A program made the position numbers and the translations under genes. This document shows positions 1 through 64,000 of a stretch of 64,000 nucleotides of DNA, in pieces. Every line of letters begins with the position of its first letter. The first letter of the stretch is position 1. The DNA comes from Taxawa tesnikishii (nom. ined.) (taxonomy: Eukaryota; Ascomycota; Dothideomycetes; Dothideales): NCBI GenBank assembly GCA_030247885.1, contig JAPDRO010000017.1, forward strand, positions 372,001 to 436,000, written 5' to 3'. The notes below the pieces were generated by a model. That model made no database searches, was not told the DNA's origin, and saw only the letters and a list, made by a program, of their open reading frames with translations.

Positions 1-1
1 C

Positions 2-2068
2 CAGCATGTCTTCCTGCATGCCACGAACTATGAAGCCCTGGACAGTTCTGCAAGGGAAGGCTGTTGCTTATGCCAACTTGTGACAAGCGTATGGAATAAC
101 GAACGAGACAGCACGTGCGATTTGCAATGCCATAGGCCGCAGAAGCAAATTGTGATAATGTCTTCGACCGCATACAGCCGCCATGAAGCTTGCTGGTCGG
201 GATTTGCTGTGGGATATCTCGTTTCTCGGGTTATTGAACCAATCGACGGATGGCCACGATTTGAGATTTTCTTAGACAGAGCCTGGGTGCCTCCTCTCGA
301 TGAAATCTGGCCGGGTATGCAACGTGATTCCACAGGAAACCCAGACTGTTATCCTCGAGGGATGTCGAAAAATTTTCACCAATCAAATACAGCCATGCGT
401 TGGTTGCAACACTGTGAATCCAATCACAAAACATGCAAGAATCGAACGACTTCACGTCTACCTACTCGGGTCATCGATGTCGGTCCGGCAAATGGTTCAC
501 GTGAGCCATTCCTTAAGATCACCAGGGTGATCTTGGTCAGTATGCGGCGTTGAGTCATTGCTGGGGGCCCAAAGGCCCGTCTATCAAAACTACCACGGAC
601 ACATATGACCAGCGGTGCTCAGGGATGTCAATGAACGAGCTACCAGAGACTTTCAGAGATGCGATACAGATCACCCGTGCATTGGGAATTCGGTATCTCT
701 GGATAGATGCGCTCTGCATTGTCCAAGGCGACAAGGAGGATTGGACAAGAGAAGCCGCGGCTATGGCTGCCGTATACGGCAGCTCGCGCGTGACGATATC
801 AGCGCTTGACTCCGAAGACAGTATGAAGGGCTTGTTTCTAACGAAACAGAAGACCGTGTGGGGCGTTGGTCCGTTACCACACTGTACAGATGCAGCAGGC
901 TTCGACGCATACGTCCGTTCAGCGCAACGGACACTCGATTCGGTCGTTGAGCGGGCTCCGCTTAACCAGCGTGGCTGGGCATTACAAGAACGCATAGTTG
1001 CGCCGAGGGTCCTTCATTTCAGCAAACAACAAGTTTTCTGGGAATGCCGGACTCGCTACTACGCCGAAAGTGGAGACAGCGCGACAGTGAAGCCGCTTCT
1101 CAAGACCATGTACGGCTGGTTACCCGGTCTTCTGGGAGATCTTATCGACAGTGACCTTTACCTGTCGTGGTATGCGCTAGTAGAAGATTATACCATGCGT
1201 GAGCTGACCTACGACACGGACAAGCTGCCAGCTGTCCTTGCTTTGGCTGTTGAATTCGAGGCAAGACTCGATTGCGCCTATATTCATGGATTGTGGAATG
1301 CGGATCTGAACCGGGGCCTGCTCTGGCACACCAACGCTCCCCATAGAATCCGGTCACGCCGTCGCTCGGTTCCAGAGCCACTGAGGGCCCCCGCCACCAT
1401 ATAGCTCCGAGCTGGAGTTGGGCTTCCGTCGCCAACCCTGTAACTTGGGAATGGCTTACGAAACGCAACATGCAAGCAGTTCCCACACCATACGACTGCC
1501 AAGTGGAAACACAGAGACTGAGGCACAGCCACCCTGGCCTTGGAGAGATGCTCCGCTCACTACCTTGCCGCGGCTTTCTCGTAAGAGTCAAGTATCTCTC
1601 GGGCATAGCCTCGGAGGACGGCGCTTGGAGCAGTAGCATAGAGGGATTCCCTCCGTCTACGTATGCTGGAATGATTATATTCCGGAAGGGCACCACTGCT
1701 GGGCTTTACGAATGAGCACATGGTACGGGGCGGAAGACACTGACTTCTCACGGGCCTCCATCCATACACACCGGACGATTACCTACTACCTACTTCTAGA
1801 TATTGTTGCAGGGCGGGAACGCACTTATCGCCGCATTGGGTTTGCAAAGTCGTTGGATGGCACAGCCCACAAGCTCTGTGACATCTGCGGTGTCCGAGTC
1901 ATCTCGGTGTACTGGCATTGCGATATCTGTTCCGACGGAGACTTTGATGTTTGCAACGCTTGCAGAGAGAAAGGTGCATCGTGCCTGCATGACTCCCACC
2001 AGCTGCGTCGCGGAAGCGACCTAAACGATTCGCTTGCCTTCGAGGAACAAGAACTTGTTCTGGTCTGA
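2..2068 (+). CDS. HET-domain protein with C-terminal ZZ zinc finger (5' partial, three 1-base frameshifts)
   Basis: Heterokaryon-incompatibility (HET) protein, a family controlling cell death after fusion of unlike hyphae. The frame is open from base 2 with no start, so the N-terminus lies outside the window. Visible blocks are LPTRVIDVG (about 460), ALSHCWG (about 550), the RYLWIDALCI box (about 690-720), RGWALQER (about 975) and APSWSWASV (about 1404), all in the order expected of HET. A ZZ-type zinc finger with paired CxxC motifs (CDIC, CDIC, CNAC) follows at 1876-2010. The reading frame changes three times, at G517, AA1347-1348 and AA1670-1671. Each change is repaired by one extra base in that run, and family motifs continue on both sides. 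I read this as one intact gene with consensus errors, although true decay is possible because HET genes are dispensable. Confidence 0.85.
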
Positions 2069-2464
2069 GCATGGGGGCTGGCTTCGATTTTCTGCTTGGG
2101 AGGACACCGCGTGGACAAAGATGTTCCGCCTGATACAATGTACGCAAACGCGGCTCTCAAACATAGTTCTTGAATTTGGTAACACCTTTCGAACCACAAA
2201 CTCCGAGCAGTGACGATCAGTCTCATGGAGACTCCTCGGAAGATGAATGGAGTACTTTCGGAACTCAGGCGCCACTCCGGGAGTGTGCAGCAGGGCCAAC
2301 ACTAATGTTGCGCGCTCCGGCTACGAAACAAGGACGACAAAGAGCGCTTCGTTTAGATCTGTGTTCACTCTAATCTATCCGCTCGTTGCGCGACGTCTAT
2401 CGGAATTGTGTGGTTTTGCCTGAAAACAGTCGATGATTGTTGCGTTACTACGAGCATGCTCGAC
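2069..2464. other. Convergent intergenic spacer
   Basis: Lies between the 3' ends of the HET-ZZ gene and the poly(A) polymerase gene. No gene, repeat or RNA is recognisable. Confidence 0.5.
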
Positions 2465-4611
2465 CTACGTATCCGCTTCAGTCCCTGCTCTAAAAATGGA
2501 ACGGTTCCTGGAAAGGGAATTACGGATGGTCGTCATTCCTGCGCGAACGTTCTTCTCTTCGAGCACCTGAGACGGGAGCCGTTGATTGTGCTCTCCACCT
2601 GCCATACACTCCTCGCCATACAGTTCCATGTCAGCCCTCCTCGGATCATAAATACGATCGCACGTGCCCACAGCGTTAGTCAGAATCGACGAGTTGTTGG
2701 GTGGCGGGCCCGCAGCGAGTTGGTCTTTAAGCTGGTTGTGTACCTCCCGCATGGTGGCTTGCACGTATTTGATCGCGAAGCTCTGTCTTCCGAGATCATT
2801 GTGCGGATCGGCGGGATCCTGCAAGCACAGCAGGTATTCAAAGTCTTTGTGTCTCCACATGATGCTGTCTTGAGCTGCAATGGCCTGAATCACTGGGTCA
2901 GTAGAGCTCCAAGCGGGCTGTCAGGATTTCGGTTCTCTTACTGGGTCGCGGAGTGCTGCTGTATGCCATCCCACAGGCAGTTGTGCGCCGTACCTCCTTT
3001 TGGAAAGTTCATGGGCGGCTCCACGGAGATGCCGCTATTTATTGTATCGAAGTTGCCGATAAAATCGAGGACATCGAGCAGTTGTTGCCCAATACTTTTG
3101 TTCTGTTGACCGGATTTTGCGAGGCTGGCTATAATCATCATGAAAATGCTGTACGAGCCAAAACCGCCATTGTAGACATCTGTAAGGTCGCGCATATCGA
3201 ACATTGTCTTGACGACGCTATACAGTGCCTTCAGGTTGGGGTACTGGGCGAGATACGTCCGAACAACTTCTTGACTATGCTTCGTAGATGGACCTGCGAC
3301 GATTTGAACATCCATGCCGGTGCGTGCGTGTGTAACCGCCAGAAGCGGGGCACGAGCGCTGGAGTAGAAGCGAATGTTGGTGAAATCGGACCGTTCTTTG
3401 AAAGATTCAACAAGCGCCTCGATAGGCAGAGCCTCGTTAGAGGTCAGGGTTGAGTCGCCAGAGTTGGGAGCCAGAGTTGGGTCTCCCTCGTTGTGAACTA
3501 AAGCCGGGTCTTCATCGCTGAAACTCAAGTCCGACTCGCCTTCTTTGAAGTCGTCTCGATGAACACGGATATCGACGTCCGACATGGGCAATGCTAGGCC
3601 AGTGACGTGAGAGCCATACACATCTGTCGAGATGTCTGGTAGCGTCTCATGAATGACTTGCATGGCTTCTTCAATAACCTCATTCCTGGCAGCGATCTCA
3701 GATGGGTGAAGTCCCATCCATTGCGCAAAAGCCACGATTTCTCGATCTAATCTATGTACCGGTTAGCTGATAGCATCATGGTAGAAACTGCGGTTCTTCT
3801 ACCTTTCGAGCCCTTGCAGTTCTTGTACACCTCCGTCGCGTATCCATTCTGGCCCGGCATCTTGCCGTCTGATTCCTAGCTTCGGGTGGACAGACGTTCC
3901 ATGGTATTGCAATATATCCTTCCGCGGCAGATTCTTTCTTTTTTCTACTCTCCTTTACGATCACACTGCACCGACGTATTATTTTCAGTACTGCAGTATG
4001 GCTCAGGTCGTTCTTGTCAATCTCTCCAAGGAATGGTTTTTCAAGCCGTTGTACCAGGTTCATCCTGAGTCGGTGAAGTTTGAGGTGCTCCTCCTCAGCA
4101 TCAGAGAGGCTTCCAAGCGTTGACTGGATCTCGGCCCTCTGATTCTTCCATGGAAAGGGCTTGTGGCTCGTCTCATCTTTGCCAACCCGGGTCTCATGGG
4201 CTTCTTTTTCCCACCTTTCCCGCTTCTTTGTGTCTATGCCACCTGATTTGGGCCGAAAAAACCATCATTGTTGGCGCTCGCGTTGATCCGTCGAATCAGA
4301 AATGCAGCATTGGCATCGCGATGAGCGTCTAGTGTGGCTGAAAGGTCATTGGTAACAACGGCATCCTTGAACCGCTCATCTACCTTATTCTTCTCCTGAT
4401 TGATCATCCATTTTTCCCTGGTTTTGTGCCTGGAGACATTCCGGAGACTATCCGAGGGATCCCGCAACAGAATCTTCCTGACTATGATCTTATCCTTCGT
4501 CTCAGAGTAAAGACGTCGCGGTGGCAGGGGCCGGGGAGCTGTGGGCGTAAGAGATGGCTGACGAGCGCTACCGCGCAGCACGTATCGTCTCGATAGGATG
4601 GTGCATGGCAT
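2465..4611 (-). CDS. Mitochondrial-type poly(A) RNA polymerase, TRF4/Cid1-like nucleotidyltransferase (frameshifted, one in-frame TGA)
   Basis: Non-canonical poly(A) polymerase that would add nucleotides to RNA 3' ends. Two exons, 4611-3803 and 3751-2465, flank a 51-nt intron with a GCTAAC branch site. The N-terminus is Arg/Ser-rich and looks like a mitochondrial presequence (RRYVLRGSARQ, then RRLYSE). The catalytic core shows the GS motif (YGSHVTG), the metal-binding pair SDVDIRV and a third Asp in GMDVQIV. The PAP-associated block LCLQDPADPHNDLGR lies near the C-terminus. Frame breaks at TTTGGG 4247-4252 (one base missing), T-run 3939-3944 (one extra) and GG 2950-2951 (one missing) are repaired by single-base edits. 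A TGA at 2921-2923 stands where Trp would fit. The repaired length is about 698 residues. Mitochondrial location is inference from the presequence. Confidence 0.75.
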
Positions 4612-5157
4612 GAATCGAGACACTGTTGCAAGAGACCTGTTGCTTAGCGCTATGCGATGCTATGCTGTGCCGTATCTGCTGTATGCACTCACCAACACAA
4701 AGTTATGTTGACTGGCGGCTAAGGTAGGGTTGGAATGCAGAACCTCAAGATCTTGTCTTATCAATGCCAAGAAGTGCCATATCAGGCTGGAGAAAGCGTT
4801 CGCGGAGATCGTGGATGACAGATCCACTCGTTGACTGAACCAGGGTCTCATGAACGTCATTGCAAATGCCGTTGTCGGTTACATAGGACTACCGGTGGAT
4901 AAACATGTAGTGCTCATGGCCACGTCGTGACTCCATTTCCCTTTCTCCTGCGAAACTCGCGACTGAAACATCCCGGTCAGCCAAGTGCAGCTGAGGAGCT
5001 CTCGTGTAGCTACTTCACTTCTTTAGTCACGCTGACTGAGCAACTCTTGTGATTGGGGTCCGACTGTACATTAACCCTTGACCGTACTGCCAACTACATT
5101 CCGTCTACACGAGCCTGTTGCCATCGAGTCCCGAATCACAGCATACAACACAGTAGA
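4612..5157. promoter_or_regulatory. Divergent intergenic promoter region
   Basis: 546 bp between the start codons of the poly(A) polymerase (-) and the GH15 gene (+); it must hold both promoters. An in-frame ATG at 5053 could extend the GH15 protein by 35 residues, but that extension looks unlike the family. No other element is recognised. Confidence 0.5.
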
Positions 5158-7384
5158 ATGGAGCACACTGCTGAGGGGTCAATAGTTGACCCTACCGGTC
5201 TTCGAGGCCAGAATGGGTACATGGTGAGCTTCTTGCTTCTACTCGAAGGCCTAGTGTGCGAATTGGGGGGATCAGCTGACGTTTTGTAGCCAATTGAGCA
5301 TTATGGTCTCATTGGCAACATGAGAACATCGGCCCTGGTAGCTATCGATGGAGGTCTAGATTTCATGTGCTGGCCGGAATTTGACTCGCCATCCGTCTTC
5401 TGTAGGATGCTCGACAAGGATAAGGGCGGTCATTTTACCATCAGCCCGCCGCGCCAGCTCCACCTCACAACGAAACAGCAATATCTCCCGAGTAGCAACA
5501 TACTCCAGACAAGATACTTGCACGAGGATGGCGTTCTCAACATTCTGGATTTCTTTCCCAGGCCGGCCAAGCCACCGGCCAGCCGAGTAGCCCAGCAGCC
5601 TCTGGGTTCCCACTCTTTGGATCATTCCCTTGTCGATAGCATTCTCAAGAAGTGGTTGGTCCGCCGAGTGGAGTGTATCAGGGGAGAAATTGACGTTGAG
5701 ATTGATGTGTTCCCTGCATTCAACTACGCTCGCGACAGCCATACGACGGAGATCATCACCAAGAAGGATTGCCAAAACGGCGAAGCACCTCAAACGGTAA
5801 CTTTCAGATCAAAGGACCTTTCCCTGCAACTGAACACCACAATTGACTGTGGAGATGACGACGACGAGCACCCATGCCCAAGACTGCATTTCGAAAAACA
5901 CGACGAGGCATCTGGCCTCGGCCAAAGCGTGCACGCAAAAGTCCACCTCGTGGAAGGCCAATCTATCTCTTTTGTGCTGCGGGATCTCGAGGACCAGCAC
6001 GCTGGCGAACATCTCACGACCGCTGTAATCGATGAGGCCCAGAAGGAGACCGCCAGCTTCTGGTATAATTGGATTTCGAAGTCAAAGTACAAAGGTCGCT
6101 GGCGAGAAATTGTTAACCGCAGTCTGATGATACTCAAGCTCCTTACATATGAGCCCACAGGAGCTATCGTTGCAGCTCCGACCTTTTCTCTGCCGGAAGA
6201 CATCGGAGGCGGCCGGAACTGGGATTACCGGTTCTCTTGGGTGCGGGATAGTTCATTCACAATCTATATCCTCCTAAGGATGGGTTACACAGAGGAGGCT
6301 GAAGCGTATATGGGCTTCATCAGTGACCGCATCCGTTACTCCCGCACGAAGGAAGGTGCTCTTCCAATCATGTTCTCCATCCGGGGTTCTACAGATCTGC
6401 CCGAGATCGAGCTCGAACATTTGGACGGCTACAGCGGCAGCAAACCCGTCCGGATAGGCAACGGTGCGGCTTTCCACAAGCAACTCGACATCTACGGCGA
6501 GCTGATGGATGCCGTTTACCTTTACAACAAGTATGGAAAACCTGTGAGCTACGACCAGTGGATATCGGTACGCGACTTGACAGACTACGTCTGTGGAATC
6601 TGGAAAGAAACGGATATGTCCATCTGGGAAGTCCGTGGACAGACTCAGAACTTCGTCTACAGCAAGATCTTGTTGTGGGTTGCTCTCGATCGGGCGCTGC
6701 GTCTTGCCGAAAAGCGCTGTTTCCCTTGTCCCCGCCGGCTGCAGTGGCTTGCGGTGCGGGATGAGATCTGCGAAGACGTTATGGACAAGGGCTACAACAA
6801 AGAAATGAACACATTTGTTCAGAGTTACGAGAACAACGAGATCTTGGACAGTGCTGTCTTGATCGCGCCGTTGGTCTTTTCATCGCACCAAATGACCCTC
6901 GCTTCACGAGCACCCTTGAGGCAATCTTGAGGCCACCGGAGAAGGGAGGACTAACAAGCACAGGGCTGGTGTACAGATACAACTGGCTAAAGAGTGACGA
7001 CGGTAAGTCATGACTGATTCTCATATTCTCACACCAGTCTGCCTTTCTAACAGGGCTATTGAGCGTGTTATCTGTGAAAAACGTACTGTATGCTAATGTT
7101 ATCAACTAGGCGTCGGAGGCCGCGAAGGCGCTTTCAGCATGTGCACTTTCTGGCTAGTCGAAGCGCTGACGCGTGCCGGTGCCTATGACAAGAGGTATCT
7201 CGTCAAGGCGATCAACATCTTCGAAAACATGCTCTCGTTCTCCAACCACCTTAACATGTTCTCTGAAGAGATTGCGCGTTCTGGTGAGCAGCTTGGCAAC
7301 ACGCCCCAGGCCTTCAGTCACCTGGCGTTGATCAGTGCGGCATTCAATCTGGACAGGGTTAGTGGGGGTAGCGGAGGTATGTAG
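5158..7384 (+). CDS. Glycoside hydrolase family 15, bacterial type (glucoamylase/trehalase-like), one frameshift
   Basis: Predicted alpha-glucoside hydrolase of family GH15. Three exons, 5158-5223, 5290-7002 and 7110-7384, are separated by introns of 66 and 107 nt. The start gives MEHTAEG, running into [13 protein letters not shown] and [14 protein letters not shown], the usual N-terminal lid of the bacterial-type branch. The core contains [26 protein letters not shown] with catalytic-region acids, and the terminal block [17 protein letters not shown]. There is no signal peptide, so the enzyme is probably cytosolic, unlike secreted starch-degrading glucoamylases. The frame breaks at the T-run 6877-6880; one additional T joins the halves into a protein of about 684 residues. 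The substrate (trehalose, maltosides or other) cannot be told from sequence. Confidence 0.85.
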
Positions 7385-18348: not shown

Positions 18349-21300
18349 TCACTCGCTCTCGTCGCTGTCATCACTCTCGGAGTCAACATCCATCCTATCC
18401 GTCTTCTGCTCCCGCTTTTTCTCCGTCTCCTTCTGGGCAATCGGCAACAGCACATCAAAGCCACCCGTTCCGATCTTCCCAACCTTACCAACGACAATCC
18501 TACCACTAGGACCCCTCAGATCATCAAAGTCCTCCTCGAGGACGGCGTCGCGCAGGAAGCCAACCGTGGTCTCGAAGCTCATCTTCATGAACGGAGAAGT
18601 GTTGCCCTTGATGCCCTGTCTGCTGAAGGCCTGATACCCGCCGCCGCGCGTCATGTAGTCAGCGATGAGGTTCAAGTGACGGTTATCGACGCTGATTCCG
18701 TGACCGGCGAAGACGGCACCGACTTCGCGTACGATGGTCGCACGTGCGGCTTCGACGCCGTACAGCCGCAGCATGGACGCGATGTCGTTGGTGAACATCT
18801 TGTTAGGGTTGATGATGTCTTGGTATTCGCGCATCGCTATCAGGTTCACGCCTTCGGTCAGGACCACAGGTACCTTGACGTCCTGGCCTGTGAGGGGGTC
18901 CGTTTCCTTCTCTTCAGAGCGTGTGCAGTCGGATAGGCCGGGCACGGATTGGATGAGAGCATCTCTTGCGGCGGACTCGACGAGGTGCAGCATGAGCAGC
19001 TTGGCGGTCTCCGAGGAGTATTCGAGCGTGAAGGTGCAGGAGGCACCTGTTTTGTCGTCGAAGTGGAAGGACGAGACGTCGTTGGTGTACTTGCTGGCCT
19101 TGATGCGCTCTTCGCGGTCTTTAGCACCCGATGCGACGGACGGGCCGTCATTCTCGTCGTCGGAACCGTCCGATGTGTGCGGGCTGCCCCCATACGCTTC
19201 GTCTTCCGGCTCATCCTCTTCAGGCTCTGCCTCCCTGCGTCCTTGAGCAGCTATAACCTCTTCGTTGTCATCCGGAGCTGCGTAACCTCCTTGTCCCTTG
19301 TTGGCCTTCGCCTTGTCCTTGGTGGCATCGTCATCGCCTTCATTGTCCGAGTCGTCGTCTCCACCCTCAGCCTCGGCTTCACTGCGACCAATTTCTTGGT
19401 CGATGGTACCTGCAGACTTCCCGATCTCAGGCATAGCGTCAGATTTCGCGGCAGCCTTCAAAGTTTTCTCGTCACCCTTCTTCTTGAGTTGCTTCCGGAT
19501 AATGGCTTGCAACCTTGGCAAGAATCTACTCTCAATTGTCCTGACAACGTCTGCAACAGTAATGGCATACTCGGCACAGTATTCGTCCGAGGGGAAAAGG
19601 TCCAAGCGAATGGTGTACATCTTGGCTTGTCCGTATGCGACACCCCTTCCGAGCTTCTCGGTCACCTGGACCTTTTCAGGACCTCGGCCAGACTAAGCCT
19701 GCTGATACCCTTGGCGAACTGTTCCCCGTGCTCCTTGGAGATCTCGGAGTTCAGGTAGAGAGTCATTGTCGGAGTGGCGATGCTTGCGCTTGCAGTCATG
19801 ACAATTTCACGCAGACGGGGAATACCCAGCGTCACGTTCTTTGCCGAGTGACCAGCCAAATGGAAAGTGTTGAGCGTCATTTGAGTAGAGGGCTCACCAA
19901 CAGACTGTCCAGCAACAACACCAACAGCCTCACCAGGCTCGACCGTGGACTTGAGATATCTGGCATTGATTATGGCTTCGAAGCTCTTCTTGGTAAGACC
20001 GTTGACACCTTCGACGTTCTTCTTCTTGTCCTTGACCAGCTTGTCCGGATTTGCGTCGAGATAGTTCTTGAACGATCGGTAGACCTTCTCTGACTTGGCG
20101 CCAGCATACTTGCCAGGGTTCCAGTTGGCAAGAGCAGGATCGCTGGCACCGAGGTCACCAGTCTTCCTGTACTTCCTCTCCGCCTCCTTGGTGTCTTCTG
20201 CTGCTTTGTCGTTGTAGATGCGCGGGAACTCATCCCGCATGCCCAGAGCATGAACCATGGACATGTAATTTTCTCCCAAGAACTTGAAGTCGTTGAGATA
20301 CTTTGCCTTCGACACATCCAGGCCGTCCTCACCGTACAAGAATTGGATGACGGAGCCATCGGCGTCGCGAACGGAAGTGTCATACTCAACCTTCATGCCT
20401 TCCATACCCTTGATCAAACAACGTTGCAGATATCCGGAACGAGAAGTTTTGACAGCAGTATCAATGAGGCCTTCTCTTCCAGCCATTGCGTGGAAGTAGT
20501 ATTCTTGTGGCCTGACTCCTGTCAAGAAACGATCCACGATGTAACCACCGGCTCTGACGCTAGGCTCAAAAGGCTTAAAACACGGCAATGTTTTGCCGCT
20601 GACCATGACTGGAACTCTCCGGCCTTCCAAAACTTGTTGTCCGAGATTGCAAGAAATCTGGTTGGCATTGACTTGGGAACCTTTGGCTCCAGATCCAGTC
20701 ATAGCTTGCATTTGGTTCTTGGGGAAAGGCTTCACCAGGGCAGCAGGCAGACAGTTCTTCGTAACCGTAGAAGAAAGGCCAGCTGTTTGGCCGTTCATCA
20801 TGGTATCGAGACCTGCCTGCTTTGTGTCGTCGCGAAGCACGTCTTCCAGGCGTCTTCGCAGTTCTGGATCATTGCTCTCAGGCTTTTCGCTCTGCAAAGA
20901 TACGTACTTTGCAGCGACCTCCAATCCTACCGTGTTGGCACCGCTGAGGGCGTCCCTTCGAATATCTTCACCTTCCCTAGTGAAAACCAGATCCTCAACA
21001 CCGCAAGAGAAAGCGCGCATGTGTTCCATCTTGGTCAGGAGCCGACCAAGGACACTCAGCAGTTTGCCAGCGATGGTGTGTCCGTATACTTCGTATACTG
21101 CGTTGACAAAGCCACCAGCAGCAGGTCCAATCTGAGCCTTGTCAAGAATGCCGCACAGCAAGTCTCCGTCCTTGAAAATGACTGTTTGTTCTTCTGACTT
21201 CGGACCCCACCTATCCGCGCCGGTCGATGACTTGGAAGAGAGCGTCAGACCGGGATGGTTTTCCGGTTTAATGTTCTTCAGTATCGTAGTAACGACTTGT

Positions 21301-23617
21301 TTGCCGGTCCACAACGGCCTTGGCTTGAGAATCGCGGGTCTCACAGTCTCTAACCGCCCAGTCGAAGTATGGTTGCTCTCTGGCCTGAGCGCCGCATAGA
21401 GTAATTGCTGATAGTCTTCTCGGTTGAAGAACGTATCCCGGTTTGTGAGCCATACACCCATCGAGATGTGATCTTGGATCAGACCTCTGAGCGGCTTTCC
21501 AGCGGTACCTGACAAGTACTGGTGATCAGTGTCGGCGATGCCGACAGCTTCCGCACGGGCAATCTCGTTCTGAGGGAAATGCATATTCATTTCGTCACCA
21601 TCGAAGTCGGCATTATAGGTGTTACAATTAGCGTAGTGCATGCGAAGGGTCTTCTCTCCGGGCAGAACACGAGCGCGATGGCACATCATGGATGGTTTGT
21701 GAAGGGTAGGCTGCCGGTTCATGATGACAATATCGCCGTTGTTGAGATGGCGATGCACCTTCTTGTTCTTCGCTCCACTGATGTTAGTGGCGGACGGTGA
21801 TAGAAGCTGGTTTGCTAATGCAGTGCGCTCCTCCTTGTTCTTGAGCTGCAAGTTGATGACCTGGCCGTTCTCATTTTCAATAGCGACGGCACCTGGCCAC
21901 TTGTACGGTCCATTCATAACCGCCTCCTTCAGTTCGTAGTAGTTATGCTCGGTGACCGGCTCGGGGTAGGTGAGCTTGACTGCGAACACAGGAGGGACAC
22001 CAATCTCGTTTGTCTCGATATTCGGATCCGGAGAAATGACTGTACGGGCAGCAAAGTTGACACGTTTGCCCATCATGTTCTTACGGAACAGACCTTCCTT
22101 CTTTTCGAGCCTTTGCTTGATACCGTCGGGATTTGATTTGCCTGCGCCGCCTTGAACTGGATTCCGGTCCCGGTCGATTAAAGAGTTCACCGCATCCTGC
22201 AACCGTACCCATGCGTCCTGAAAATCGGCATAATTCCGGCTCCGGCGTCCAGCTTCTGCCACGGTAGTACCGTTCAGCTCCTTGTGGATTTGTCCCATCA
22301 GCTCGCACGTGTTGAGGATGTTCTTGTACAAAGTATTCTCCTGGGCCTCCGCGATTTCGCCTTCTCCCATACGAGCCTCGGGCCTGAAGCGATTTGGCGG
22401 GACCAGTAAATCTTTGATGAAAAACATGTCTGCGCTCACTGAAGGACCCTTCTTTGACCGTGAGTGCGGCCCGTAGACCATACCCATAATCTCCTGCTCT
22501 TGGTTGAACAGATGGACAAGCGCAGCATGCACCTGGCCCGCATTGACATAGATCTGGTCAGAGTCGGATTTTTGGCTTTTTTGTCCTGCCTGAGCTTGCT
22601 TCCGTCTCCAACACGTTTCCACCTGCCACCTCTTGTTCGATATCCAGCATTTCGATGTCTTCGCCCTCGCCCTCGGACTCTCCAGATGGGTCTTCCAGAT
22701 CGGCAACACCCTCGTCCTGCTCGAGGCCCCTCTTTTGTCCGCAGCCGCAGCAGCCTGCCTCTGCTTCTTTAGCAACAACATCGGATCTTGTGCCTTGAAG
22801 CCTCCTTGCACCATAGCAATCCTGTCCTTCTCCGGCAGAGGCTTCTGAAAAATCTTAACAAAGCGGTCCTTGCGATAGCTGGGAGAGACACCACCACAGT
22901 TTCCGCACTTCTTGCCCTTTGTAATCTCATAGAGGAACTCCTTGACAAGAGCTCTCCTCTCGTCGGCTACGGCTTCGATCTTGGCTGTTGTCTTGTCCTC
23001 CATGTTCTTACTCAGCCCTGCCAGCTTGATGCATTTCTTCACGAAGCGATTCCTGCGCTCAATAATGTCTTTCGTATCCTGGTCCAGACCGGACTCATCG
23101 TCATCATCCGCCTCCCTCGCGGCGCTTTTCGAGATTGGGATAGAATTGAGCTCTTCCAGATCGTAACACTCTTTGATGAGCCCATACTTGATTAGGCGAA
23201 ACTTGCAGGTAAAGCGGTTGACTTCCTGGCGGGACATCTTGAGGTGGTGACAGTATATACATTTGGCGCGGAGTAGTCGCAAACACTGGTCCATAAAGGT
23301 GGGGTTATATACGTGTACCGGCATCTCGATATGACCGCAGTGGCCGGGACAACCAAATTTGAGATTACATGTTCCGCATCTGCAAATACTGTTAGCTTGC
23401 CCCCAGCATACTGTTGCCCGAAGAGTCTTGCTCACGCATTGTCGCCAAACGCGCCAAGGGCTGCATCATAAAGACCTCCAGGTACAGGATTGAGGAGGGT
23501 ATCGAAGGTCGTGGGGTTCGTAACTCTCTTCACAGAGAGTGCTCTGATCTCGTCCGCCGCGAGAATGCCGAACTCGACGCCTCCAATAGCGGAGGAGACG
23601 GGCTGTGAGATGTTCAT
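18349..23617 (-). CDS. RPA190: DNA-directed RNA polymerase I largest subunit (three homopolymer frameshifts)
   Basis: Largest catalytic subunit of RNA polymerase I, which transcribes rRNA in the nucleolus. Exon 1 (23617-23436) encodes the N-terminus MNISQPVSSAIGGVEFGI. A 56-nt intron with a GCTAAC branch site follows, then one long exon to 18349. The zinc site CGTCNLKFGCPGHCGH follows the intron directly. The active-site block NADFDGDEMNMHFPQ lies near residue 650, and the bridge-helix and trigger-loop region has AGQSVGEPSTQMTLNTFH. The C-terminal jaw contains the acidic insert typical of Pol I and ends in an acidic tail. The frame breaks at T-run 19673-19676, at one of the T-runs 22569-22573 or 22577-22582, and at C-run 22737-22740. 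Each is repaired by a one-base change, giving about 1,737 residues. The gene is essential, so these must be sequence errors. Confidence 0.95.
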
Positions 23618-28907: not shown

Positions 28908-30308
28908 TCACAATTCATCACGGGCGGCGGGTCTCCCGCTATCCTTTGCGAGATCGACGCCCTTCTTCCTCCTCCACTTCTCCCACGTGTCCCAGAACTC
29001 CTTCTCCATGCCCTTGTCCATCTGATCCGGTAGCACGACGACGTAGTCGACGAAGAGGCTGCCGAATTCGGGCCCGGACTCGTGGCGCCAGACGGGCATG
29101 CCCTCGCCCGCTACCGTCTCGACGGTTCCCGGTTGCACGACCTGGCCGCGCTTGCGCGAGAGCTGGACCACGTGACCGTCCAAGTGCGTCAGGTTGCGCG
29201 TCCAATCGCCCATCCACGCCTCGCGCAGACTGAGCACTTCGCGCCAGTAAAGATCCGTGCCTTTGCGTCTGAAGAAGGTGCCGTCCGTGCGATCGTTCTT
29301 CTCCTTCCCGCTGCCCAACTCCGGCTCCTTCTCCGAGAGCGTGACGAACAGGTCTCCGGCCACGTAGTCCGGGCTCTCGTCGCCCTCGTTCTCGAACTGT
29401 ATCCGCGCGCCCTTGGGCACGCCCTTCTCGATGACCAGCGTGTGGGATTCTTCCTCGCGCACGACGCGCTTGCCGTCGCACACCTTGCACTTGTGTTTTA
29501 TCGTGGTGCCCTGTCCGCCGCACACGTCGCACGCCATCTGCATCTGCTGGAAGATGCCCGGCGCCAGCTGCGCCTTCTGGATGATCATCCCTTGCCCGTT
29601 GCACCGTCCGCACCGCTCCCGATGGCCGTCTTCGCTGCCGGACCCCTCGCACGCGGAGCATATCGCCTGCTTCTCGATGGTGATCTCGTGCTCCGCGCCC
29701 GTGTAGAAGTCCCGCAAGGGCATGTGAACGTTCACTTGCATGTTGGGACCCCGTCGGACGCCGGGCTGTCCGAAGTGGCCGCCGCCGCCGAAGAAGCGGG
29801 AGAAGAGGTCGAAGGGGTCGTGTTGGGGGCGTCCGCCGCCTTGTTTGTGTTGTTGCAGGCCTTCGTGGCCGTATTGGTCGTAGATTTTGCGCGTGGACGG
29901 CTCGATGAGGGCTTCGTAGGCTTCGGCTACTTCGACGAACTTTTGGTGCGCGGTTTCGTCGCCGCTGAGAAAGGATTAGTTGGTCTCCGAAGAGTGTTGT
30001 AGTCTGAGGGCTGGTGGGAAGGCGAAAGTGGATGCATAGCATGGGCAGAGGAGAGGTGAGGAGGGGACGGGAGAGGGAGGACGTACGGGTTCTTGTCCGG
30101 GTGGTACTTTTGCTGAGGTTCCGGTAGGCCTTCTTGAGCTCTTTATCAGAGGCACTCTTATCGACCCCGAGGAGCTGTGTCGTCGAGTCAGGAGCGAGAT
30201 CTCAGTGTTTTGAGAGGATTTGATTGTGCAGACCTTGTAATAGTCCTCGGCGCAGAGGGCCAACAAAGGCAGGAGGCACAGCAGTGCCAATGTGTGTAAC
30301 CAGAGCAT
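28908..30308 (-). CDS. SCJ1: ER-lumenal DnaJ/Hsp40 co-chaperone (SCJ1 type), one frameshift
   Basis: Co-chaperone of the ER Hsp70 BiP, acting in folding and degradation of secretory proteins. Three exons, 30308-30234, 30174-30087 and 29964-28908, have introns of 59 and 122 nt. The signal peptide (MLWLHTLALLCLLPLLALCA) leads into the J-domain (EDYYK, then LLGVDKSASDKELKKAYR and HPDKNP). A Gly-rich segment (RFFGGGGHFGQ) and the four CxxCxGxG-type zinc repeats follow (CSACEGSGSE, CGRCNGQG, CDVCGGQG, CKVCDGKR), then the C-terminal substrate-binding domains. The protein ends in RDEL, an HDEL-like retrieval signal. The frame breaks in the T-run 30108-30111, right at the HPD region; one more base restores SKKYHPDKNP and a 406-residue product. 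Confidence 0.93.
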
Positions 30309-42202: not shown

Positions 42203-43859
42203 ATGTCCAAGGAAGAGACTCTAACCCAAGACCGGATCGTTGCTCTTCGTCAAGAACTGAAAGCTTGGGAGAAGTCGTTCTCAGCTGCCAATGCAGGACG
42301 CAAACCCGGTCGTGATGATATCAAGCAAAATGCCGCCATAGGTATGCATGCGCCCGTGTATGGTGAAAGTACAAGCGCATCTCTGACAGACACAAGCGGC
42401 CAAATACAAAGAATATGACCGCCTGCGCCGTCCACAGCCTCAAAAGAGGCAGGCACAAGCCAGTACACCTCGTAAACGCGCCGCCTCACCACCCACTCCC
42501 CAAGCTGCCAAACTCGCAGCACCCATCCACGCGACTCCCCGAAAGAACACCTCACCTTCTGCCTACAACCACGACAACAGACTTCCCCACGAGCCAGAAG
42601 AGGAAAAGCAGGAGGAGGAGGAGGAGGAGGAGGAAGACTCGGAACCCGAACCCACCCCGCCGCAATCCGTCAATTCCTCGGTCCTACGCCTCAAAAAGAC
42701 GGCCAGATCCTCAGTCTCTTCGACTGCTTATCGTCCGGCACGCCGTCGAAACCTCAACGGACGTTTTTGTTCCCAGAGGACAGCGCTGTCGCCTGCACGC
42801 CCAGCAAGCCCCAGAATACCACCGCGCTGTTCGGGGACGAGGACGGAGGACGGGCACGGCTGAGCCGGACGCCCGCATCGAGCGGGAAACGCTTCATGCT
42901 GGACGCCTTCGCCACGCCTCGGAAGCGGAAATCGGACGATATGGACGGGGCTGCGGGGAGGATACGCCGGTCAAGGAGTTCGCTACGCCGGCGTTTTTGC
43001 GGCGGAGCACGAGTCTTGCAAGGCTGGAGGCGTTGACCGAGGAGGCGGAGGAGGCGGGTATTGGACTGGGTATGAGGAGGATGAGGGAGCCGCCGTTCAA
43101 AAAGAGAGGATTGGTGAGGAGTTTGAGCAGTATCATCAAGGGGCTGAGGGAGCAGGAGGAACAGAGGATGGACGACGAGATGGATATGCTGCGGGAAATG
43201 GAGATGGGGTCAGGGGAAGTGCTGCAGAAACAAGGGCGCAGAAGACGACCGAAGTGGGAGAGGTGCAGGAGCCTGAGGTGCAGGTCGAGGATAGCCAAGC
43301 GGCTGATATGCCACTGGGCCCGGACCGGAATGCGGAATCCGAAGAGGAAGCGGAGGAAGAGGGACAAGGACTGGATGCGGAGGGTAGACCGAGGAAGGTG
43401 TGGAAGAAGAAAGGACTGAAACGACAGACTAGAAGGGTTATCAGTAAGTTGTGTTGCATTCATGTCGCTGATTACGACGCTGACATGCTACTTGCAGTGC
43501 GTCCCGTCCTTCACAAACCCAAAAAGCAGCAAGTTAGGGAGCCGCTCTCCGACGGTGACGCAGATCCAGTCTCCGAAACTCAGCTCCAAGCACACGCACA
43601 GAATCCTTCAGAAGAAGGCAAGGAGAACGATCCCGAAGAACAAGCATCAGGGGATAGCGAATATGACGAGGGCACAAACGCCGTGCCAGTAAAAGCCAAG
43701 AAGCCAACAAAATCCACGAAACAAGAGAAGAAGAAGGAAGGCGCGGCGAAGAAAGCGCCACGCAAGATCAGCGCCACGGCGCACGCCAACTTTGTGAAGT
43801 TGAAGATCAAGAACAAGAATTCGAAGGGGAAGGGCAGGGGACGGTTTGGGAGGAGGTGA
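42203..43859 (+). CDS. SLD2: DNA replication regulator Sld2 (three homopolymer frameshifts)
   Basis: Replication-initiation factor. When phosphorylated by CDK it binds Dpb11 and helps assemble the CMG helicase (fungal counterpart of RecQL4's N-terminus). Exons are 42203-42341, 42397-43443 and 43498-43859, with introns of 55 and 54 nt. The N-terminus LTQDRIVALRQELKAWEKSF, then AAKYKEYDRLR, is the Sld2 signature. A Glu run, the block FLGPTPQKDGQILSLFD and several TP/SP CDK-type sites (RTPASSGKR, FATPRKRK, EDTPVKEFATPAF) follow. The C-terminus has KRQTRRVIMRPV and a Lys/Arg tail. The frame steps back three times (GG at 42662, G-run 42955-42958, A-run 43228-43230). Adding one base at each gives 516 residues. 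The frame order 0, 2, 1, 0 is what three successive deletions predict. Confidence 0.9.
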
Positions 43860-44498: not shown

Positions 44499-44609
44499 GG
44501 CGAAGTGGCCGAGTGGTTATGGCGGTGGATTCAAGTTACTTGAATAACTTAGCTGTTGAACAGCTTCCCACTCTCGAAAGAGGCAGGGGTTCGAATCCCC
44601 TCTTCGTCA
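44499..44609 (+). tRNA. tRNA-Leu(CAA), class II, with intron
   Basis: Acceptor GGCG-AAG pairs with CTTCGTC (one G-T wobble); discriminator A, as in leucine rather than serine tRNAs. The A box GGCCGAGTGG and B box GGTTCGAATCC are clear. A long variable arm (CTCTCGAAAGAG) marks class II. The anticodon loop TTCAAG is complementary to CTTGAA just inside the intron, the classic anticodon-intron pairing of fungal tRNA-Leu(CAA). A T-run (44614-44617) follows. The exact intron ends are uncertain because the 3' anticodon stem pairs imperfectly. Confidence 0.8.
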
Positions 44610-52531: not shown

Positions 52532-54801
52532 CTAAGATGCAGTGATGCCCCTCATACGAGAGATCGCAGCAGCCATCTCGAATCTTCTGACTGCGACAAG
52601 GTCTCCTCCTTCGAGTGAGGCAGACATGCATTGATCCATCGCAGCCTCCTGTTCGACCATCGTCAGGTGGGCAGAAAGCTGCTTACCCTGCACATCAGAC
52701 TCGGCCAGCCGATACAGGTAATGAGCGATTGTTCTACTTTGGCCGACCTCAACTAACTGATCCAGGCCAGACAAGTCAACACCAGGCTCCGCTTCTGCTG
52801 GATTCTTGATGGGGTCAGGACCCGAGGAGAAGGTGACGAAGGCCTTACGACGAGCAAAAGGAGGCTTCCCTGTAGAACGTCCTGCGGGTAGTGGATGTTA
52901 CGCTGCGGCAATGCACCGTACTGCGAATCCTGATGCACATGGGTAGGGAGTTGCTGGACGATGTTGGCAGCGTCTGATGTCAACATCCGTGGAACGTAGG
53001 ATTCCATACCGATCACAAAGTCAGCAACGGAGAGCCAGTCACCTAGGCCACCAATGACGATGACGGTGCTGACACCATGCTGGCTGTAGAGCGCTCGTAC
53101 TTTGGACACAAGGGGCGTGATGGGCTCATGGCGCACGAGCTGCTGCATGCGTTGGTCCCTAACCAGAAGGTTTGTTGCCGATGAGTCTTCGTCAATGAGG
53201 AGGGCCTTGCAACCAGACTCCAACGCTTCCTGGATGTTGGCAGCCATGGAAGTCGATCCGCTAGCATCGTCAGTGGCAAACTTCTTGGTACTCTTACCAC
53301 CAGGGAGGTTGCTGATAAAAGGACTGATATCTGTTGCAGTAACGCTTCGGCCATCTTCGGCTCGAACTTTGACGGCGGTTCTGTCGCTGACGATAAGTTC
53401 CCTGCCGTCACCGGGGATATGGTCATACACGCTAAGCTCCAGCGCTTCCAATAGCGTAGATTTTCCATGAAAACCGCCTCCAGTTAGAAGGGTGACACCA
53501 TGAGGGATACCCATGCCGCGGACACCAGCACCGTGCTTGCGTTTAAGCACAACTTCAAGATCAGGAGGGGATTGAAATGGAACAACGCCTTGGCCGGTCA
53601 TCGGACGCGCTGACGAACCGCTCGCTCTTGGTAGTACTGCGCCGTTAGCAACAAAGGCTACCAGTCCTCTTTCTTGAAGCTGTGAGCGCATGAAGTGTTG
53701 ATCCTCCACGGCATGCAAATGCCTGGCAATGTGGTCTTTGTTGTGGGATTGATACATCAACACCGAGCGGACCAGATCTGGTAATTTAACATGTAGGATG
53801 CTGAGAGCCTGCTGCCCTAGGATAGTGCGTCCCCTCGCCGGCAGAGCGACGGTAAAGCGCAGCTCAATTGTTCGGTTCGGATGTGTGTTTGAGACGACGG
53901 CACTCGTGCGAGGAAGTACCTCCTGTCCGGGAGCATTAATGTTGAAGGCACCTCCCTTAGGACCCGACCAGCCTGTGCCAGAACTTGACTGGTCTATGTA
54001 GTTCCGACTAATGTAACTTGCAGCCGCTCGAGTTACGTAGTCTCCGAGTGCTATTCGTCTGATGTCGGATTCGGCAAATTCATCTGGAAAACCAGTGTTC
54101 GACTACGTCAAGTCAGGATTGCTATGCGATATGAATGAGAAGACCGACACTTAACATTTTACTTACCCATTGGCAGATGGCCCGGACTCTTGAGGGTGGT
54201 GCGTATGCATCACCTTGCACATGGTCGACCAAGAGCGTAAAGGATGGTGAGGTACACTGATACTTGCCTCGAAGTCGATTGTAGGCACCTGAAGAACTTT
54301 GCTTAGTATGCTTTTTGCGATGCCTCTTATTCTATTCACGTAGGCAAAGTCCTTCCACAGCTTCCGCTGTCAGAAGAAAATCCACGGCACAATCATGGTA
54401 GGACCGATGAGCGGTCGCCAAGGAAGACATGCTGGATTAGGGCACAGGACGCCGCGCTCTGCTGAGATGCCCTCGCCCACTCGCTGAAACTGACTGTTGG
54501 GGAAAAGAAACCATGTTTCCGCTTACCGTACGGTTGGCCGTCGATGCTTCTCAAATCGCGCTGGAGGGAGTCCCAATCGCTTGTTCCTGTGTTACCGTGG
54601 TTCACCCCGTCGTTACTATCACGAGCTGACGCTGCCTCATCGGCGCCATTAGCGCGGGAATTAGCATGAGCCGTTCCACGCCCTCCGCCGTATTTGGCTT
54701 TGTAGTGGGCGCCCCGCCCCCGTCCTCCTCGTCCTGTGAGTGCTGTCAGTCGAAAGAGACAAACGAGCGGAGCGAGAGGTGTGGCACTGTATACCAGACA
54801 T
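52532..54801 (-). CDS. Predicted ATPase of the ABC class (PF09818 family), with 7-nt first coding exon
   Basis: Soluble P-loop ATPase of the 'predicted ATPase of the ABC class' family, function unknown. Four exons: 54801-54795 (only ATG TCT G), 54733-54527, 54288-54167 and 54083-52532; the third intron boundary is one base out of phase. The N-terminus is RG-rich (GRGGRGRGAHYKAKYGGGRG), suggesting RNA or nucleic-acid contact. Family blocks are QRDLRSIDGQPYGAY, FTLLVDHVQGDAYAPPSRVRA and DIRRIALGDYVTRA. Walker A is LTGGGFHGKSTLLEAL, the signature-like block is NLPGGKST, and Walker B is ALLIDEDSSATN. The C-terminal block is GLDQLVEVGQSRTIA. Frame errors at the C-run 54166-54168 (exon 3 edge) and T-run 52866-52867 each need one base. 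The repaired length is 629 residues. Confidence 0.87.
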
Positions 54802-55141
54802 GAGTGGTCAGAGTGACTGGCGAACGGCTGTTGTTGGCGGAAGAAATGAATGTCGCTTGTGTGCGTGGGATAGTATGACGACGAATGAAGGGTCTTGGTT
54901 TGCTCCCGAGCCCGTGGCTGCGCTAGCGGGCGGATCCTGGCAGAGTCTCGCTCCACGCATCCCATTCCTCACTCGATCTGCCTTCCGCTTTCCGCACGTC
55001 TCTCGTAGCTAGTCGAGCACATTCCGGTGAAACGAGCCGCAACCAATTTGACTTCCAGATTAGACTAGGGCTCCCCAAATTTGGATTACGCCCTGTATCG
55101 CACGCTCGATTACCGCGGATAGGCGCCCTCACCGCCCAATC
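54802..55141. promoter_or_regulatory. Divergent promoter region, ABC-class ATPase / SSXT-like
   Basis: 340 bp between divergent start codons. No TATA box is obvious. Confidence 0.5.
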
Positions 55142-57933: not shown

Positions 57934-58924
57934 ATGAAAGGCCGACAGGCTAAGCCATCTCGTGCGACTTCACCCACTAGCACCAGCACTCAAGCTGATA
58001 CTCCGTCCACTCCAATTCCAATCCCAACCAGTCGCACAAGTTCAGATATGCCGCCAAAAAACGCAAGTCAACCTACACCGCCGCGCCAGCAACGAAAAAG
58101 CTTCTGTAAGTTGCGGTAGCTTCAACTATGTAATAGCTTTTGCTGACACATGGCAGCATCTCCCAGACGCACGTTCTTTGGCTCAAATTCGCCGAGGGGA
58201 AGAAGATCGTTCCTGTCCACGCAGACGTGTTTTCAGGCCGCTCGAGGCTCCTTCAGCAAACCTTCACCGACGTGCTGAAGCAATGCAAGGAAACCGAAGA
58301 CCACACCATCAAATTCCCAATGTCAATTACCGGATACACGCCTACCGACTTCATTGAGTACAATACCTGGCTCAACACCCAAACCTTCACATTCCAGTAC
58401 GACGATCTTACGAACAGCAACCCAGACCGCGCATTCGATGAAGCAATTCGCGTCTACAGTCTCGGTGAGTACATGCGGGACTCCGCCCTCCAGAATCTGG
58501 CCATGGATGAGATCACCCGCCTTGCCAAATTCTTCGGCAAACCTCCATTGAAACTATTATCACCGGCCGGTCTCAAAAACAAGGACATGCTCCAAAAGCT
58601 CTGCCTCGATCTTTGCAAGACCTATCTCACCCAGGAGCAAGTCACGACTAGCAACATGTCTAGGGAAATGATGGCGGGCCTCCTCGGACACTTCATCAAC
58701 GCCGCCAAAGGGGTGCTGCTGCGAACATGGCGGCGCTTGAGGGTCCTTGTGCCTACCATGTTCACGATGAGACGTCGCTGTGCGGTGCCCAGACACGCCG
58801 TGATGGTGCTGCAGAGCCGAGAAAGCAACCAGCGGAAGAGAACAAGGAAGAGCGAACGGAGATGGAGGACAACCTGAATTCGGGAGAGGCGGAGGCAGAG
58901 GCGGAGACGGGTGGTGCGGCGTGA
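57934..58924 (+). CDS. BTB/POZ-like fungal protein (frameshifted)
   Basis: Probable protein-interaction factor with a divergent BTB/POZ domain. The start is ATG 57934. Exon 1 has a Ser/Thr/Pro-rich leader ending near 58105-58115, then an intron ends at 58156. With the strong GTAAGT donor at 58106 one base (probably in A-run 58095-58099) is missing; a weaker donor at 58116 keeps frame with a 41-nt intron. The domain reads VLWLKFAEGKKIVPVHADVFSGRS, then AIRVYSLGEYMRDSALQNLAMDEI, typical of BTB strand-helix order. The frame breaks in the G-run 58710-58713; one more G gives a Cys/His motif (GPCAYHVHDETSLCGA) and an acidic tail ending at TGA 58922-58924. The repaired length is about 313 residues. 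Confidence 0.65.
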
Positions 58925-59275
58925 GGAAGGGTTGAGAGTAGATGCAGAAGCATAAGTACTTTTGAAGGGAGTTTGGGGACAAATGTAACACTAGAACGTA
59001 GCTGCTGCCCGCATTAAGATTGTTCCTAGTGGCGCCACAGAGTGTGGCTGTGCAATCGGGATACGGCCTCTCTCCTTCCGTGGTTCTTCCCCGCCGTTTC
59101 CTTGGCTGGCCCCTCCGTTTGCTGCCCTCTTCCTCTCTTGCCGATTCCGCGACGTCACCCTCTCTGCCCTGGAAACACAACATTGCAATAGCGGACGAGG
59201 CTTAGCAGGAGGACCACGCGTACTTCTGCACATATCCGAGTCGCATTTCAGGCACCCGGATAATTTGTATTCAGT

Positions 59276-59299
59276 ACCACCACCACCACCACCACCACC
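59276..59299. repeat. (ACC)8 microsatellite in fimbrin leader
   Basis: Eight perfect ACC units about 55 bp before the fimbrin ATG, probably within the 5' untranslated region. The rest of the 58925-59353 spacer holds nothing recognisable. Confidence 0.9.
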
Positions 59300-59353
59300 G
59301 CTCCGTCTGTACATACCCCCACCCATTGCGACACCCACACGCAGACAGCCAAC

Positions 59354-61486: not shown

Positions 61487-62214
61487 ATGGGGGAAATAGT
61501 GAAGGGATGATCCGAGATGTCGATCAGCGTCAACCGGGGGGGGGGCTTGTGCTTAGTCTTTAATAGAAGCGCAGCGCTAGCTATCTCGTCAAAAGCGAGC
61601 GAGATACATGTCCTTTCATTTCTCCATGATTCCAGTCTCCGACGTTGTCATGAGATCCTGTTGCCTTATGCGTTCCCGACACTGGTGTAGAGCAGCGTGA
61701 TGGGTGGGAAACTACTATTTCTCACCTCTATACGCTGCCGTCCGGATGGGAGAAGGAAACGGATCTTGAATTCCTCTTCATTTAACTGAACTGCGTGTGC
61801 TTGGACGCACCAACACGTGAATGCATGAATCCATATTCTCTATGCTGCGCTAAGCGGAGCAGTGTCTGGGGAAAAGTCCGGGGGTGCGGGGATCCAGGAT
61901 CGACAAGACCAGACCGAGGAGACCGGCCATCAGTAGCAAACCCTCTGCCCCTCATCTCAAGGAGGAGTCTTATCCCCGGGGGGTCTGGTGAGGGGCAGTA
62001 GGGATTCGGACTGAACGCGTACACACGGAGGAGTGAATTCCAAGTAGGCGATGTGTAGGTCTCCATTTGCCCGTTCTATAAACTCGCGACCTTTCCGTCT
62101 CTTGTTCCCTTCTTCCTGTTGCTTTTCACTGTATCTGTTCACAGAGCTAGCTGGTTTACTCCGTTGAGCTGCGATTTCACCTTATCGACTGTACTCTTGT
62201 CGCTGTCGAACATC
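61487..62214. promoter_or_regulatory. Intergenic region with TATA element for GMC gene
   Basis: 728 bp. TCTATAAA at 62085-62092 lies about 125 bp before the GMC oxidoreductase ATG and is well placed for a TATA box. A G9 run near 61537-61545 is noted. No other gene is seen. Confidence 0.55.
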
Positions 62215-64000
62215 ATGGCCAGCAGCAGTAACACTCCCTCAGCCCTCTGCTCCATCGAGGAGTTTCTGGCAGAAACATACGACTATGTGATTGTAGGCGG
62301 CGGCACGGTAAGACTTCCCTCTTCACAGTTCAGATCATTCCTCACGATGCTTACCCGATACAGGCGGGCCTCTGCGTCGCGGCGCGCTTGACCGAGAACC
62401 CGGACGTCAAAGTCGCTGTGCTCGAAGCCGGTGCCGACCGCATGGACGATCCTGCAATCTCGACTCCTAGCTTGTATCCGACTCTGATCGGACGCGAGAA
62501 GTACGATTGGTGCATGACGAGCACCCCACAGGTGAATTTTGTCTTGCTGTGGAGTTGGGAGGCGAACAGGAAGATGAAGGTTGATTGGTGAAACTAGGAA
62601 ACGGCAGGGAACAAGACCTACTCCATGCCTCGGGGAAAGGTTCTTGGTGGTTCGTCGGCGATCAACTATCTCAGTAAGTTGTGTAGTCCGAATTTGCGGT
62701 GAACGGGTATTGAGACGACCCGAACAGTGTACGTCCGCGGTTCTCGAGCAGACTACGATGGCTGGCGCAGTCTCGGCAATGAGGGATGGGGTTGGGATGA
62801 CCTCGCACCCTATTTCAGCAAACACCAGACGTTAGTAAAACATTCGAACCACGATCTCGGCGTGTGATTTCAGAGCTAATTGAAGCACATAGGCTCGATT
62901 CACCGGAGACTACGCCTCCAAACCCACAGTTCATGCCCCATGCCGCTGCAGACAAGTACCACGGTACGTCCGGTCCAATCCACACGAGTTTCAATGACTT
63001 CTACGCGCCCTTCGAGGAAGACTTTGTGACTGCTGCATACGAAGTCGGCGGCACAGGCAACACGCTCGTTGATGCTTGGAGCGGAGATCACCTGGGGTTC
63101 TACTCGAGCCTCGGCGCCGTCAACCGGACGACCGATCCGGGCAAGAGAAGCTATGCTGCAACCGGTTATCTGCGTCCTAATCTGGGCAGGAAGAACTTGA
63201 AAGTTCTCACGGAGGCGCAGGCCACGAGAATCGTGCTTGATGGGACCAGAGCAACTGGAATTGAGTTCGTACACAAAGGGGTGAGACACCAGGTATCTGC
63301 CGCTCATGAGGTTATCTTGAGCGCAGGCGTCATCCAAAGCCCGCAGCTGCTCGAGCTTTCCGGTATTGGCGACCCAGACGTCTTGAGAGCAGCAGGCGTC
63401 GAGTGTGTTGTAGAAAACAACCGGGTAGGCGCGAACTTCCAGGATCATGTGCTAGGCGGCATGTTGTTCGACCTGGCAGATGGTGTCCAGTCGATGGATG
63501 CATTGCAAGGCGCTGAATATGCGAAGGCCCAGCAGGAGTTGTATGAGAAGACCAACAAGGGACCATACGGGAGTCCCGGAATGCTGATGGGTTTCGTGTC
63601 ATATGCCTCGCTCGTCTCGAAGGAGCAGCTTGACGCGACAATTGCGGAAATACGAGAAAACTCACTGGCACAGACTGACTTTGAAAAAGCACAAGAGCAG
63701 GTATGGGAGAAACCTTCGAGCAAAAAGAAGGCCAAGGAGCATTGACTTACCGACTCACTGCCAGGTTATCGTTAACCAACTATCGGACCCAACGTTCGCA
63801 AACATCCAGGCCTTTTGCATCCCATGCCAGCTCGACGTCAGTGCAGGCTCGGATCAGACAAAGTTTTTCTCTGCCCCACCGGCCGAGAAGAACCGCTGTT
63901 CGCTGCTCGTCTGCTTGGAGCACCCTCTGTCGCGTGGAAGCGGTACGTTTTCCCCATTTTCTGTCATGGTGACATAGAAAGAAGCTGATCTGTCTAGTAC
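62215..64000 (+). CDS. GMC oxidoreductase (choline dehydrogenase/aryl-alcohol oxidase-like), 3' partial
   Basis: FAD-dependent alcohol oxidase or dehydrogenase of the GMC family. Exons are 62215-62307, 62364-62531, 62598-62673, 62728-62830, 62893-63700, 63765-63942 and a start of another at 63998, with introns of 54-66 nt. The coding sequence runs off the right edge. The FAD site YDYVIVGGGTAGLCVAARL is split after Thr by intron 1. GMC signature 1 is PRGKVLGGSSAINYLMYVRG and signature 2 is GVIQSPQLLELSGIG. No signal peptide is seen, so it is probably intracellular. The catalytic His/Asn region is beyond the window. It differs from the methanol oxidase at 15.5 kb: it is of the choline dehydrogenase type, and the two are not recent duplicates. 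Confidence 0.92.

What the first reader, a model, noticed from the sequence alone, without database searches (positions are those of the whole stretch)
1..64000. About 23 single-step frameshifts, nearly all one-base losses in short homopolymers, spread through otherwise complete genes
Breaks occur at 517, 1347, 1670, 2950, 3939, 4247, 6877, 17216 (a GC unit), 19673, 22569/22577, 22737, 30108, 32912, 32944, 35216, 42662, 42955, 43228, 52866, 54166, 55588, 58095 (possible) and 58710. In each gene the protein family continues on both sides, and after one-base repairs the total exon length is divisible by three. Losses greatly outnumber gains. This fits consensus errors of an under-polished long-read assembly and would make automatic annotation report false pseudogenes and split genes.
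Basis: partly seen in the sequence, partly recalled or inferred. Interest (0 to 1): 0.7.

Follow-up and report, generated by a model that had tools for sequence, protein, structure and literature searches.

The report
Sequencing errors posing as broken genes
Many genes in this stretch of a fungal genome look broken by missing single letters, but similar breaks appear elsewhere in the same assembly and in genes a cell cannot live without, so they are most likely mistakes of the genome assembly and not biology.

Summary
The window lies in a 29.37 Mb, 34-contig assembly of what its genes and introns suggest is a filamentous fungus. Five of these have family matches in different frames on both sides. 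Two (2950, 54166) are ordinary GT-AG introns. Two (55588, 58095) are unconfirmed. Sixteen of 19 step as if one base were missing.

The pattern is not confined to the window. A frame-aware coding model finds 28 shifts in 77,867 coding bases of twenty 10-kb samples: 21 losses, 7 gains, 14 within 8 bases of a run of 4 or more (random coding positions 11%). Three of the 28 have an intron candidate. Model-generated sequence gave no shifts, and 98 of 126 spiked indels were recovered. Genes known as essential are hit with no room for an intron: the largest RNA polymerase I subunit in the window and RNA polymerase III RPC2 in a sample. Slippery heptamers are few (3 of 25) and run phases even (6:4:5), against programmed frameshifting. 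Best reading: residual homopolymer consensus errors. No reads were available.

The parts
517..550 (+). frame change (one-base-short kind) just before the HET domain of a HET gene
   Evidence: stop-bounded interval, no intron candidate; HET domain downstream at 541-990
1347..1401 (+). frame change (one-base-short kind) in the HET gene
   Evidence: stop-bounded interval, no intron candidate; translation
1637..1712 (+). frame change (one-base-short kind) in the HET gene, upstream of a weak ZZ-finger match
   Evidence: ZZ E=0.0016, below Pfam's cut-off
   Evidence: donor, branch point and acceptor reconcile the frames
   Evidence: interval and no intron candidate; gene family downstream
   Evidence: GH15 positions 4-254 end at 6876, 310-426 resume in another frame at 7109; coding model 2.0; no intron candidate
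   Evidence: GMC_oxred_C downstream in its own frame; coding model 3.2; no intron candidate
19665..19692 (-). frame change (one-base-short kind) in the largest RNA polymerase I subunit
   Evidence: chain residues 322-1289 in one frame, 1278-1685 in the next; coding model 8.3; no intron candidate
   Evidence: the alignment drops out at query 296-366; acidic linker-like reading in another frame; not proven, the frame stays open
   Evidence: DnaJ positions 5-26 end at 30109 in one frame, 35-63 resume after an intron in another; translation; intron scans
   Evidence: intervals and no intron candidate; translation; MFS domain upstream
   Evidence: CorA match downstream
   Evidence: Pfam Drc1-Sld2 matched in three frames, hand-overs 29 nt apart and overlapping; downstream piece of 42662 scores; no intron candidates
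   Evidence: ABC_ATPase in one frame, MRB1590_C (below cut-off) in the next; no intron candidate
   Evidence: coding model places a shift at 58764, but no gain at 58710 itself; no intron candidate

Best explanation
The frame breaks are residual consensus errors of the genome assembly, mostly short homopolymer runs written one base too short, scattered at about one per 3-5 kb of coding sequence. The living fungus very probably has intact genes at these places. Shown here: frame changes without introns, clustering at runs, an excess of losses, presence in samples from ten contigs, breaks in RNA polymerase subunit genes. Inferred: that noisy long reads were used and under-polished, since no reads could be examined.
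For: Sample: 28 shifts in 77,867 coding bases, 21 losses, 14 of 28 near runs of 4 or more against 114 of 1,017 random positions (binomial p=4e-7). 25 of the 28 have no intron candidate; of these 20 are losses and 13 lie near runs. Controls: 0 shifts in 103,354 decoded coding bases of model-generated sequence; 98 of 126 spiked indels found, all with the right sign, 9 of 98 near runs. RPA1 and RPC2 change frame with overlapping homology. Coding runs of 6 or more are rarer, relative to codon shuffles, than in E. coli K-12. Precedent in a nanopore-only fungal assembly (PMC7500977, passages).
Against: No reads or metadata. The model's seven events in the window itself are 4 losses and 3 gains, 3 of 7 near runs. 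The coding model supports only 4 of 24 listed coordinates. In conserved families scanned genome-wide only two hand-overs are too tight for an intron, and proteasome genes show none, so the rate is uneven or lower than the model says. Long poly-A/T runs do survive in the assembly. E. coli also lacks long G/C runs to a degree. In PMC7500977 polishing brought more insertions than deletions. The null sequence came from the model itself.
Confidence: 0.95

Rival explanations
1. Ordinary introns: the frame changes are spliced out and the reader missed the splice sites.
For: True for 2950 and 54166, and likely for one sampled event, L017:3043, with a 53-nt candidate. Most hand-overs in the chaperonin, HSP70 and proteasome tables are intron-sized.
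Against: 18 of 21 entries and 25 of 28 sampled events have no candidate; random coding positions give one in 9 of 348. RPA1, RPC2 and Sld2 hand over with no missing residues.
Confidence: 0.03
2. Real mutations: decaying genes or a mismatch-repair mutator that shortens runs.
For: Run contraction is what a mismatch-repair defect would give (general knowledge). Breaks cluster at runs.
Against: RNA polymerase I and III subunits, known as essential, are broken. Sequence after the break is conserved (RPA1: 282 bits). The RPA1 frame of 1,257 codons has no internal stop before its break.
Confidence: 0.015
3. Programmed -1 frameshifting or slippage: the run lengths are real and the fungus decodes them.
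For: A missing base is formally the same as a -1 shift. Breaks favour runs. In-phase slippery heptamers are commoner than background, 3 of 25 against 3 of 380.
Against: 22 of 25 loss events lack a heptamer, and the 15 runs found lie in all three phases, 6:4:5. Gains also occur, 7 of 28. The Sld2 gene needs three shifts that sum to a whole codon.
Confidence: 0.005

Closest known systems
Homopolymer indel errors in nanopore-only fungal assemblies (Drechmeria coniospora, PMC7500977; passages seen)
   Same: Most errors lie in homopolymers and alter reading frames of conserved genes; gene accuracy falls with the number of runs of 4 or more; fewer than one-sixth of 305 conserved genes were full length in the initial assemblies.
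   Different: There, polishing brought more insertions than deletions. Here losses prevail in the sample, and the platform is unknown.
Systematic nanopore errors treated by Homopolish (PMC8011154; passages seen)
   Same: Mainly indels in homopolymers that shift reading frames and survive polishing.
   Different: That paper has reads and references; here neither was available.
Frequent +1 frameshifting in Euplotes ciliates (PMC10235951; start of abstract seen in the listing)
   Same: Many genes need a frame change to be read through.
   Different: There the shift is +1 at internal stop codons. Here most are of the -1 kind, and in Sld2 the open frame 42415-43419 runs across two of the changes without a stop.

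Membership tests
Homopolymer consensus errors of a long-read assembly | single-base frame steps concentrated at homopolymer runs | tested here: met
   14 of 28 sampled shifts near runs of 4 or more, against 114 of 1,017 random positions and 9 of 98 spiked indels; 3 of 7 in the window
Homopolymer consensus errors of a long-read assembly | spread over the assembly, regardless of gene function | tested here: met
   12 of 20 sampled stretches; RNA polymerase I and III subunits affected; rate uneven, none seen in proteasome genes
Homopolymer consensus errors of a long-read assembly | long runs shortened throughout | tested here: inconclusive
   coding runs of 6 or more: G/C 0 of 26.6 and A/T 3 of 17.1 expected, E. 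coli 6 of 21.5 and 75 of 99.2; but no fungal reference, and runs of 12 or more exist
Homopolymer consensus errors of a long-read assembly | accurate reads disagree with the assembly | not testable with these tools
   no reads available
Spliceosomal introns | donor, branch point and acceptor that reconcile the frames | tested here: not met
   none at 18 of 21 entries; met at 2950 and 54166; one poor candidate at 30108
Programmed -1 frameshifting | slippery heptamer in a fixed phase | tested here: not met
   3 of 25 loss events; run phases 6:4:5
Pseudogenes | dispensable gene with relaxed conservation after the break | tested here: not met
   RPA1 and RPC2 remain conserved after the break; essentiality is general knowledge, not a call

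The most novel reading that the evidence does not exclude
The run lengths are real, and this fungus routinely decodes short-run frame shifts in essential genes by slippage of ribosome or polymerase: a counterpart of Euplotes with mostly the opposite direction and no fixed site.
Probability: 0.005. Interest if true: 0.95.

Novelty: not a real feature. Interest (0 to 1): 0.1.

Why it matters
It matters for data use, not for biology. Automatic annotation of this assembly would report false pseudogenes, split genes and spurious tiny introns, and could mislead work on gene loss. At 0.22 shifts per coding kb in the window and 0.36 in the samples, many longer genes would be affected.

Tried and rejected
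Introns, real mutation and programmed frameshifting were tested and rejected as general explanations.

Weak or failed lines. The coding model alone supports 4 of 24 coordinates. Pfam found nothing for the short pieces at 6877 and 17216, for the region of 55588 or for the continuation after 2950. Of nine sampled regions tested, four show a family or neighbouring domains in two frames (L007, L011, L014, L017) and five do not; only L014 (RPC2) is too tight for an intron, L007 and L011 leave about 400 bases, and L017:3043 is probably an intron. Two sampled events (L002:107, L013:4213) have stops that do not fit a single step. In family tables I first took several hand-overs for breaks; allowing for overlap of matches, most are intron-sized, and only one chaperonin (C1, near 528262) and one HSP70-like gene (C3, near 494623) are not (arithmetic by hand on the tables). 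A further HSP70-like step (C1, near 1374200; about 38 nt) is borderline. Comparison of rDNA copies and naming of the species failed: the rRNA family search did not complete and two primer patterns found nothing. Paper searches by assembly size and contig number did not name the source.
Full report
What the window is. It is positions 372001-436000 of contig C9 in an assembly of 29,367,862 bases and 34 contigs. Short GT-AG introns (median of 65 decoded introns 59 nt) and genes such as HET, GMC oxidoreductases, GH131 and alternative oxidase suggest a filamentous fungus; the species could not be named.

Checking the list. Frames were searched apart, with X at stops, against Pfam and, for one gene, against solved structures. 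The clearest case is the largest RNA polymerase I subunit: residues 322-1289 of rpa1 (7aoc) match in one frame and 1278-1685 in the next, so the change lies within about ten residues, at 19665-19692, with nothing missing. The Drc1/Sld2 gene is matched in three frames, with hand-overs 29 bases apart and overlapping. In the DnaJ gene, model positions 5-26 end at 30109 and 35-63 resume at 29963 in another frame. The eight positions between fit the 24 bases up to a GTACGT donor at 30086, where the HPD motif (recalled as the J-domain hallmark) is read one frame off. The ABC-class ATPase at 52866 also has matches in two frames, the second below Pfam's cut-off.

Introns. One search scanned 21 entries. 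Eighteen have no candidate, and 2950 and 54166 are ordinary introns. The candidate at 30108 leads to a frame other than that of the downstream DnaJ match, and a direct link has none. The bound used for 32944 was faulty; the rescan found none. 55588 and 58095 were not scanned and stay unconfirmed.

How strong the rest are. Twelve of the 19 lack family matches on both sides and rest on stop pattern and translation. The coding model alone favours a shift at 4 of 24 coordinates; none of 60 control positions exceeds 0.5. In RPA1 around 22551-22763 the frame stays open.

Special to this window? No. A coding model with introns and frame-shift states was trained on the window and twenty 10-kb stretches, two from each of ten contigs. 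It finds 7 shifts in 32,129 coding bases of the window (4 losses, 3 gains, 3 near runs) and 28 in 77,867 of the sample (21 losses, 7 gains, 14 near runs), in 12 of 20 stretches. The model has no term for runs; random coding positions lie near runs in 114 of 1,017 cases. At penalties of -7 and -12 the sample gives 35 and 22 shifts. Model-generated sequence gave 0 shifts in 103,354 decoded bases, a generous null; of 126 random spiked indels 98 were found, all with the right sign, 9 near runs. Intron candidates exist for 3 of 28 sampled shifts, against 9 of 348 random positions; the other 25 are 20 losses and 5 gains, 13 near runs.

Homology in the sample. Four of nine tested regions show a family or neighbouring domains in two frames; only RPC2 (L014) is too tight for an intron: Rpb2_6 positions 1-330 and 326-373 in different frames, the downstream part matching RPC2 of 5fj8 at 227 bits. 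Tables for chaperonins, HSP70, class I tRNA synthetases and proteasome subunits show mostly intron-sized steps; one chaperonin and one HSP70-like gene step frames with no room for an intron. This suggests a lower or uneven rate in highly conserved genes and is told as a result against a uniform rate.

Run lengths. In decoded coding sequence G/C runs of 6 or more are absent against about 35 in codon shuffles, and A/T runs of 6 or more number 3 against about 21. In intact ORFs the figures are 0 of 26.6 and 3 of 17.1, against 6 of 21.5 and 75 of 99.2 in 150 kb of E. coli K-12. Exact G/C runs of six number 747 in the assembly, against 11,321 expected from composition alone. Runs of 12 or more A/T do exist, at 216 overlapping positions. 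Without an accurate fungal reference this supports the reading but does not decide it.

Biological rivals. In-phase slippery heptamers occur at 3 of 25 loss events (background 3 of 380), and the runs lie in all three phases, 6:4:5. Decay is unlikely for RPA1 and RPC2, because sequence after the break is conserved and these genes are known to be essential (general knowledge).

Known precedent. Passages of PMC7500977 describe the same picture in a nanopore-only fungal assembly. Passages of PMC8011154 describe indels in homopolymers that shift frames and survive polishing. Direction depends on base caller and polisher; in the first paper polishing brought more insertions.

Verdict.

Noticed in passing
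window 44499-44609, + strand: A tRNA gene (Rfam 44.4 bits) of 111 bases, hence probably intron-bearing; ARAGORN did not report it.
   Followed up: no
   Followed up: no
sampled stretches L002-L021: Shift counts are uneven, 0 to 5 per 10 kb (variance/mean about 2), as if read depth or accuracy varied.
   Followed up: no
L021 (C10:400001-410000): An AT-rich stretch, 36% G+C against 52-57% in the other nineteen samples.
   Followed up: no
whole assembly G000: Two universal fungal rDNA primer patterns have no match, one exact and one with up to two mismatches; the rDNA may be missing, withheld or altered by indels.
   Followed up: partly
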